From: an uncultured Bacilli bacterium
GTDB lineage: Bacteria > Bacillota_I > Bacilli_A > RF39 > UBA660
Assembly (NCBI GenBank): GCA_944350495.1
Contig: CALVOZ010000002.1
Coordinates: forward strand, 135,421-199,420
Direction: 5' to 3'
Length of the DNA: 64,000 nucleotides
The translations under genes and the position numbers were made by a program. The notes under the pieces were generated by a model that saw only the letters and a list, made by a program, of their open reading frames with translations, did not search any database and was not told the origin of the DNA. Each line of letters begins with the position of its first letter. Position 1 is the stretch's first letter. Below are positions 8,229-8,370 of the stretch, piece after piece.

Positions 8229-8370
8229 TGAAGAGAATTAATTGAATAAATAAATTATTTATATAATAAATAATTTATTTAATGACTGGGCTATATATAT
8301 CAAAGCTACTTGCAAAGCATTAATAATGATATACTGAACCCGCTGCAAGTGTGTAATACACATCTCTTCA
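8229..8370 (-). ncRNA. Structured leader RNA of the reverse transcriptase
   Basis: 142-nt non-coding segment between promoter and RT ribosome site. Ends close as an 8-bp stem: TGAAGAGA (8370-8363) with TCTCTTCA (8236-8229). Inside, 5' to 3': a small hairpin TGTGTATTACACA; a 6-7-bp helix ACTTGCA (8350-8344) with TGCAAGT (8314-8308); a 15-position helix of GGG..TATATCA (8341-8327) with TGATATA..GCCC (8302-8288), which crosses the previous helix, so it is a pseudoknot or an alternative fold; then a perfect 14-bp AT hairpin. The layout (short stems, long hairpin, end-closing repeats, RT downstream) resembles retron or DRT RNAs, but homology is not shown. Confidence 0.6.
8248..8280. repeat. Perfect 14-bp AT-only inverted repeat
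   Basis: AAATAAATTATTTA and its exact complement flank a 5-base loop, just upstream of the RT ribosome site and inside the leader RNA. It has no T tract after it and is not a normal terminator. Confidence 0.7.

What the first reader, a model, noticed from the sequence alone, without database searches (positions are those of the whole stretch)
8229..8370. Closing 8-bp stem matches the predicted transcript start
TGAAGAGA at the 5' end and TCTCTTCA just upstream of the ribosome site are exact complements 142 nt apart. The TGTTATAAT promoter would start the RNA at the first stem base. In retrons such end repeats (a1/a2) frame msr-msd. Two independent signals agree on the same boundary.
Basis: seen in the sequence. 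Interest (0 to 1): 0.7.

Follow-up and report, generated by a model that had tools for sequence, protein, structure and literature searches.

The report
Closing stem of reverse-transcriptase partner RNA
The paired ends are real and mark the two ends of a conserved ~142-nt RNA (Rfam "RT-5") whose transcription probably starts at the stem; the RNA sits directly in front of an uncharacterised reverse transcriptase (group UG26), so this looks like a partner and perhaps template RNA of a defence-type enzyme rather than a retron.

Summary
On the minus strand an RNA starting at 8370 and ending at 8229 is closed by an exact 8-bp stem, and a TGTTATAAT promoter element ends 5 nt before it. Alone this is weak: the AT-rich window holds 438 similar 8-bp inverted repeats. 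Relatives settle it. In 69 non-redundant relatives the stem is kept (9.55 of 10 pairs; 7.8 with swapped strands) with compensatory changes. In 16 of 23 relatives lacking a conserved upstream gene, a TATAAT-like element sits 6-8 nt before the stem.

The RNA is Rfam RT-5 (51.7 bits); the enzyme is a UG26 reverse transcriptase (461 bits). RT-5 precedes the UG26 gene in 76 of 80 loci. The retron reading fails: the enzyme is far below the retron cut-off and lacks the NAxxH motif.

Added here: a pseudoknot absent from the Rfam structure (99.6% of cells paired), an accessory gene in 47 loci, and a same-genus genome lacking RNA and enzyme together. The single strand before the closing stem resembles the A-B-A' template of DRT10/telomerase, but only suggestively (p=0.003 uncorrected; independent pairs 8:3, p=0.11).

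The parts
8376..8384 (-). extended -10 promoter element TGTTATAAT; TATAAT at 8381-8376, 5 nt before the stem
   Evidence: sequence; TATAAT-like element at gap 6-8 nt before the stem in 16 of 23 relatives without the upstream accessory gene
8229..8370 (-). whole predicted ncRNA, 142 nt (extended RT-5 RNA)
   Evidence: MFE -37.8, z -5.5; Rfam RF03026 covers 8253-8354; median span in relatives 138 nt
8363..8370 (-). closing stem P1, 5' strand TGAAGAGA
8229..8236 (-). closing stem P1, 3' strand TCTCTTCA, abutting the ribosome-binding site
8350..8362 (-). stem-loop SL1 (UGUGU AUU ACACA)
   Evidence: changes on both sides in all 3 tested pairs
8344..8349 (-). pseudoknot P2, 5' strand CUUGCA
   Evidence: 99.6% of cells paired, all 6 pairs with changes on both sides
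8309..8314 (-). pseudoknot P2, 3' strand UGCAAG, in the loop of P4
8288..8341 (-). P3 stem enclosing the short P4 hairpin (8305-8318)
8247..8281 (-). P5 hairpin, 16 bp here; sequence varies but a hairpin recurs in relatives
8235..8246 (-). candidate template UUC-AAUUAA-UUC (A-B-A'): single strand J (8246-8237) plus the first bases of the stem; predicted cDNA repeat TTAATTGAA
   Evidence: suggestive tests
8222..8229 (-). ribosome-binding site AAAGGTGG
   Evidence: sequence
7029..8216 (-). UG26 reverse transcriptase, 395 aa from the ATG at 8216, YADD active site
   Evidence: PADLOC RT_UG26 461 bits; Pfam RVT_1; AlphaFold2 pLDDT 93.7
6265..6975 (-). 236-aa gene of unknown function after the RT; a relative follows the RT in L006, L007, L093; not found in the same-genus genome that lacks the RT
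   Evidence: no Pfam match

Best explanation
The stem is the terminal helix (P1) of a ~142-nt non-coding RNA, RT-5, transcribed from its own promoter whose start is about the first stem base. The UG26 reverse transcriptase encoded immediately downstream binds this RNA and uses it as cofactor and template. P1 brings the two ends together and delimits the RNA. SL1, P3/P4 and the pseudoknot P2 form the protein-binding body. P5 followed by the short single strand J places a template next to the active site. By analogy with DRT9 and DRT10 the product would be a short DNA repeat made over and over (here TTAATTGAA), as part of anti-phage defence. Shown here by computation: stem, covariation, promoter position, pseudoknot, linkage to UG26. 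Inferred: binding, use as template, repeat product, defence role.
For: RT-5 lies upstream of the UG26 gene in 76 of 80 loci scanned, plus L085 and a sub-threshold copy in L032. In a separate sample RT-5 occurred in only 2 of 392 genomes, both with a UG26 RT. P1: 9.55 of 10 pairs native, 7.8 with strands swapped between relatives, 7.3 shuffled, A-U/G-C exchanges at nearly all positions. Whole structure 93.2% of cells paired against 40-48% for slid controls. Promoter spacing conserved. A same-genus genome keeps flanking genes but lacks RNA and RT together. The RT's nearest PADLOC UG groups besides its own are UG27, UG17 (=DRT10), UG4 and Drt9. Its model aligns over nearly its whole length with DRT9 (Z 23.6, 368 residues, rmsd 4.4). 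The DRT10 ncRNA is 137 nt, has a central stem with smaller stem-loops, and needs a stable stem-loop just upstream of the template (PMC12632851).
Against: No experiment links UG26 to RT-5, to DNA synthesis or to defence. The A-B-A' signal is modest: 51 of 69 have a repeat of at least 3 nt, p = 0.0026 without correction for relatedness, p = 0.11 with independent pairs. In fold the RT is closest to group II intron RTs (Z 30.9), not to DRT9. It has no obvious C-terminal priming tail like DRT9's. In the window the RNA is also the 5' leader of the RT mRNA, so a regulatory role is possible.
Confidence: 0.72

Rival explanations
1. Retron: the stem is a1/a2 framing msr-msd, and the RT makes branched msDNA.
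For: Complementary ends enclose a structured RNA directly upstream of an RT gene; weak similarity to retron RT models.
Against: RT is UG26 by about 350 bits over any other model; NCBIfam retron models far below cut-off; no NAxxH in 44 sequences; retron RT structures align less well (Z about 16-18) than group II, DGR or DRT RTs; RNA is RT-5.
Confidence: 0.05
2. The structure is a cis-regulatory leader of the RT mRNA (autoregulation or translation control), not a separate RNA partner.
For: In the window and in L006/L007 the 3' strand abuts the ribosome-binding site; RNA and RT lie on one strand.
Against: The structure is far larger and more constrained than an SD-sequestering element; in most relatives a U-rich tract follows the stem (57 of 69), as if the RNA could end there; in L061 and L081 another ORF or several hundred bases separate RNA and RT yet the RNA is kept. 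Both roles could coexist.
Confidence: 0.17
3. The locus is a degenerate or unrecognised group II intron whose RNA end is this stem.
For: The RT fold is closest to group II intron RTs.
Against: No group II intron RNA match in Rfam; the RNA is 142 nt and closed on itself; the UG26 profile matches over full length.
Confidence: 0.03

Closest known systems
RT-5 RNA (Rfam RF03026)
   Same: The interior of the RNA (8253-8354) matches above the gathering score; the same RNA precedes UG26 genes in 76 of 80 relatives.
   Different: The Rfam model (104 nt) stops short of the closing stem and, as displayed, has no pseudoknot. Here the RNA is extended to 142 nt with P1, the J strand and P2. In the window the Rfam alignment misplaces P5, which is unusually long.
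UG26 reverse transcriptases (PADLOC RT_UG26, class 'DRT')
   Same: Full-length match, 461 bits; all 44 tested sequences match.
   Different: No published experiment on UG26 was found in the library searched.
DRT10 (UG17), PMC12632851
   Same: ~140-nt upstream ncRNA, central stem with stem-loops, single strand after a stable stem-loop with an A-B-A'-like pattern; RT profile related (106 bits).
   Different: No recurrent SLATT neighbour was recognised beside UG26; J has a near-invariant YAA while the DRT10 template loop is poorly conserved; product and priming unknown.
DRT9 (UG28), PMC12483538
   Same: Structured ncRNA directly upstream of the RT; RT fold aligns over most of its length (Z 23.6).
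   Different: No conserved poly-U template tract was seen in RT-5; the UG26 model aligns only up to DRT9 residue 480, before the tail with Y496/Y498.
Retrons
   Same: Complementary RNA ends and an RT gene just downstream.
   Different: Different RT group, no NAxxH motif, no recognisable msr/msd architecture.

Membership tests
RT-5 RNA (RF03026) | covariance-model score above 45.7 bits | tested here: met
   51.7 bits, full model 1-104
RT-5 RNA (RF03026) | located next to a reverse-transcriptase gene | tested here: met
   RT start codon 12 nt after the RNA; upstream of the RT in 76 of 80 loci
UG26 reverse transcriptase | best and full-length match to the UG26 profile | tested here: met
   461 bits, profile positions 1-397 of 398; next UG model 108 bits
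UG26 reverse transcriptase | anti-phage activity | not testable with these tools
   needs plaque assays
[quoted passage not shown]
   51 of 69 with at least 3 nt; permutation p 0.0026 uncorrected; independent pairs 8:3, p 0.11
DRT10-type tandem-repeat synthesis | adjacent SLATT-domain gene | tested here: not met
   the recurrent neighbour family and the window's neighbours have no SLATT match in Pfam at the thresholds used; not every neighbour in every relative was scanned
DRT9/DRT10 protein priming | C-terminal Tyr/Ser beside the active site | tested here: inconclusive
   Y389 conserved in 41 of 44 near the C-terminus; distance to the active site not measured
Retron | retron RT with NAxxH motif | tested here: not met
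   absent in all 44; VTG only in 6, most near position 364
Retron | retron RT profile above cut-off | tested here: not met
   best retron model 60 bits against 235
Retron | inverted a1/a2 repeats at the RNA ends | tested here: met
   P1, but terminal helices are not unique to retrons
Retron | branched msDNA | not testable with these tools
   needs nucleic-acid analysis
Group II intron | group II intron RNA | tested here: not met
   no Rfam intron match in the window at gathering score

The most novel reading that the evidence does not exclude
UG26 with RT-5 is a further telomerase-like bacterial system: the RT repeatedly copies the J strand (UUC-AAUUAA, realigning on UUC at the base of the closing stem) into tandem-repeat DNA, with P5 as the template boundary and the base of P1 supplying the alignment site.
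Probability: 0.33. Interest if true: 0.8.

Novelty: new member of a known kind. Interest (0 to 1): 0.5.

Why it matters
RT-5 is a curated RNA family for which I found no assigned function, and UG26 an RT group for which no experiment was found here; tying them together gives both a testable partner. Knowing the likely ends of the RNA, its promoter and a pseudoknot not shown in the Rfam model tells an experimenter what to express and what to mutate. If J proves to be a repeat template, it would add another bacterial lineage, found in Bacilli, Clostridia and Bacteroidales of gut and rumen, to the systems compared with telomerase.

Tried and rejected
Single-sequence searches for relatives found none; an alignment query found 80. 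Viral contigs and phages gave only distant RTs; plasmids gave group II introns and no DNA match. Searches for UG17 and UG27 in 245 genomes of the phylum found none, which does not show absence, so no direct DRT10 comparison or joint tree was made. MAFFT misaligned the window in P5, so P1 was also tested with an alignment-independent anchor. The duplex-energy swap test was less clear because close relatives share stems (17.6% of swaps as good). The automatic P5/J split failed for several sequences (L006, L016, L047, window), so the template test used a conserved YAA anchor instead. Weinberg 2017 and Mestre 2022 are not in the library; nothing in this report rests on them. Retron and group II intron readings were rejected for the reasons in the rival list.

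Full report
What was claimed and what is there. TGAAGAGA (8229-8236) and TCTCTTCA (8363-8370) are exact reverse complements with a 142-nt outer span. The RNA is on the minus strand: 5' end 8370, 3' end 8229, followed at once by AAAGGTGG and the ATG of a reverse transcriptase at 8216. TGTTATAAT occupies 8384-8376, so TATAAT ends 5 nt before the stem. In a 26.8% GC window this alone proves little: 438 exact 8-bp inverted repeats of similar span exist in the window, and about ten TATAAT-plus-8-bp coincidences. A generic promoter scan shows no excess.

Identity. The RNA matches Rfam RT-5 (RF03026), 51.7 bits against a cut-off of 45.7, at 8253-8354 minus. The protein is a UG26 reverse transcriptase: PADLOC RT_UG26 461 bits over the full profile, next UG model 108 bits. 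NCBIfam retron and group II models are far below their cut-offs.

Relatives. An alignment of three UG26 proteins recovered 80 loci in MAGs labelled Bacilli, Clostridia, Bacteroidales and one Eggerthellales, mostly gut and rumen. Rfam finds RT-5 upstream on the same strand in 76 of 80 loci scanned (two of the 80 repeat contigs seen twice), again in L085, and below threshold in L032. In an independent sample RT-5 was in 2 of 392 genomes, both with UG26.

The closing stem. With the inner end of the 5' strand fixed by a sequence anchor, 69 non-redundant sequences have on average 9.55 of 10 pairs. Swapping in a 5' strand that differs at four or more positions gives 7.8; shuffled 3' sequence gives 7.3. 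A-U/G-C exchanges on both sides occur at nearly all positions; for example the window's outer U-A pair is G-C in L006 and L007. RNAalifold recovered the stem without being told. With the whole structure, 93.2% of cells pair against 40-48% for slid controls, 315 cells have both sides changed against 103 expected, and no shuffle of 500 reaches this. In P1 all five tested pairs show changes on both sides, at 85.5% paired although the MAFFT register there is imperfect.

The promoter. Relatives fall in two classes. In 45 analysed loci a conserved small gene ends a few to tens of nucleotides before the stem, and no -10 peak is seen, so the RNA is probably co-transcribed with it. In 23 others, an element with at least 5 of 6 matches to TATAAT ends 6, 7 or 8 nt before the stem (5, 6 and 5 loci, 16 in all), against 0-2 loci at other offsets. 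Some have a perfect TTGACA 15-18 nt further up. The window (gap 5) belongs to this class.

The rest of the RNA. The 142-nt RNA folds at -37.8 kcal/mol, z -5.5, into P1, SL1, P3 and a 16-bp P5. Comparative data add a pseudoknot P2 (CUUGCA 8349-8344 with UGCAAG 8314-8309): 99.6% of cells paired and changes on both sides in all six pairs. The Rfam consensus line has neither P1 nor P2. A U-rich tract follows the stem in 57 of 69 sequences (in the window itself it lies beyond the ribosome-binding site), as if the RNA could end there.

The enzyme. The AlphaFold2 model (pLDDT 93.7) is closest to the GsI-IIC group II intron RT (Z 30.9), then G2L4 (26.8), the DGR RT (24.7), DRT9 (23.6) and DRT2 (21.0); retron RTs come in at about 16-18. 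The NAxxH retron motif is absent from all 44 sequences.

Context. The recurrent neighbour in 47 loci is a protein family, mostly 150-200 aa, directly upstream of the RNA, without a Pfam match above cut-off. The window lacks it. There the order kinase-like gene, RNA, RT, 236-aa gene, small convergent gene, SDR, methionine gamma-lyase is shared with L007/L093 and largely with L006. A same-genus genome (L092) keeps the kinase-like gene, SDR and lyase but lacks RNA, RT and the 236-aa gene, so RNA and RT are absent together.

How it may work. DRT9 and DRT10 use an ncRNA of roughly 140-190 nt encoded beside the RT as template for repetitive DNA; [quoted passage not shown]). RT-5 has a hairpin (P5) followed by a short single strand J with a near-invariant YAA, then the base of P1. 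J reads UUC-AAUUAA-UUC in the window, AUUC-AAACUA-AUUC in a Prevotellaceae MAG (L020), CUUU-AAUG-CUUU in a Lachnospiraceae MAG (L062). A repeat of at least 3 nt is present in 51 of 69, and native tails match better than exchanged ones (3.04 against about 2.8 nt; permutation p 0.0026, not corrected for relatedness). In phylogenetically independent pairs the direction is right in 8, wrong in 3 and tied in 4 (p 0.11). I regard this as a good hypothesis, not a result.

Verdict. Observation confirmed; boundary interpretation supported by comparison; retron interpretation not supported. The thing is a member of RT-5/UG26 with newly described ends, promoter and pseudoknot, and most likely a defence-type RT with its partner RNA.

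Noticed in passing
L009:2296-2847, L058:2281-2838, L073:1392-1940 and 44 other loci: A conserved accessory gene family, usually 150-200 aa with an N-terminal MGLFxK-type start and a C-terminal ...PYINFYTQMPNERGYVI... region, ends a few to tens of nt before the RNA's stem; no Pfam match above cut-off.
   Followed up: partly
window 5975-6256 (+); L006, L007, L008, L011, L013: A 93-157 aa protein family convergent with the RT; directly after the RT in L008, L011 and L013, further away in the window. Possibly a second accessory gene in lineages that lack the upstream one.
   Followed up: partly
window 8402-9268 (-); L092, L093: Kinase-like gene by eye (FPDLCTCDNIF...FIDYDG) upstream of the RNA, without a Pfam match; its terminator-like hairpin (8380-8415) runs into the RNA's promoter.
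   Followed up: partly
L092:3900-5500: Same-genus genome lacking the RNA, RT and 236-aa gene; two other genes lie between the kinase-like gene and SDR.
   Followed up: partly
L061:2074-2634 and L081 between 2383 and 3001: The RT-5 RNA is separated from the RT by several hundred bases (in L061 with an ORF, DinB-like by eye); RNA kept intact.
   Followed up: no
L030, L036, L084: UG26 RT genes without a detectable RT-5 RNA upstream; possible divergent RNAs or broken loci.
   Followed up: no
window 9397-9915 (-): Short gene with a weak von Willebrand factor A match (below cut-off) two genes upstream.
   Followed up: no
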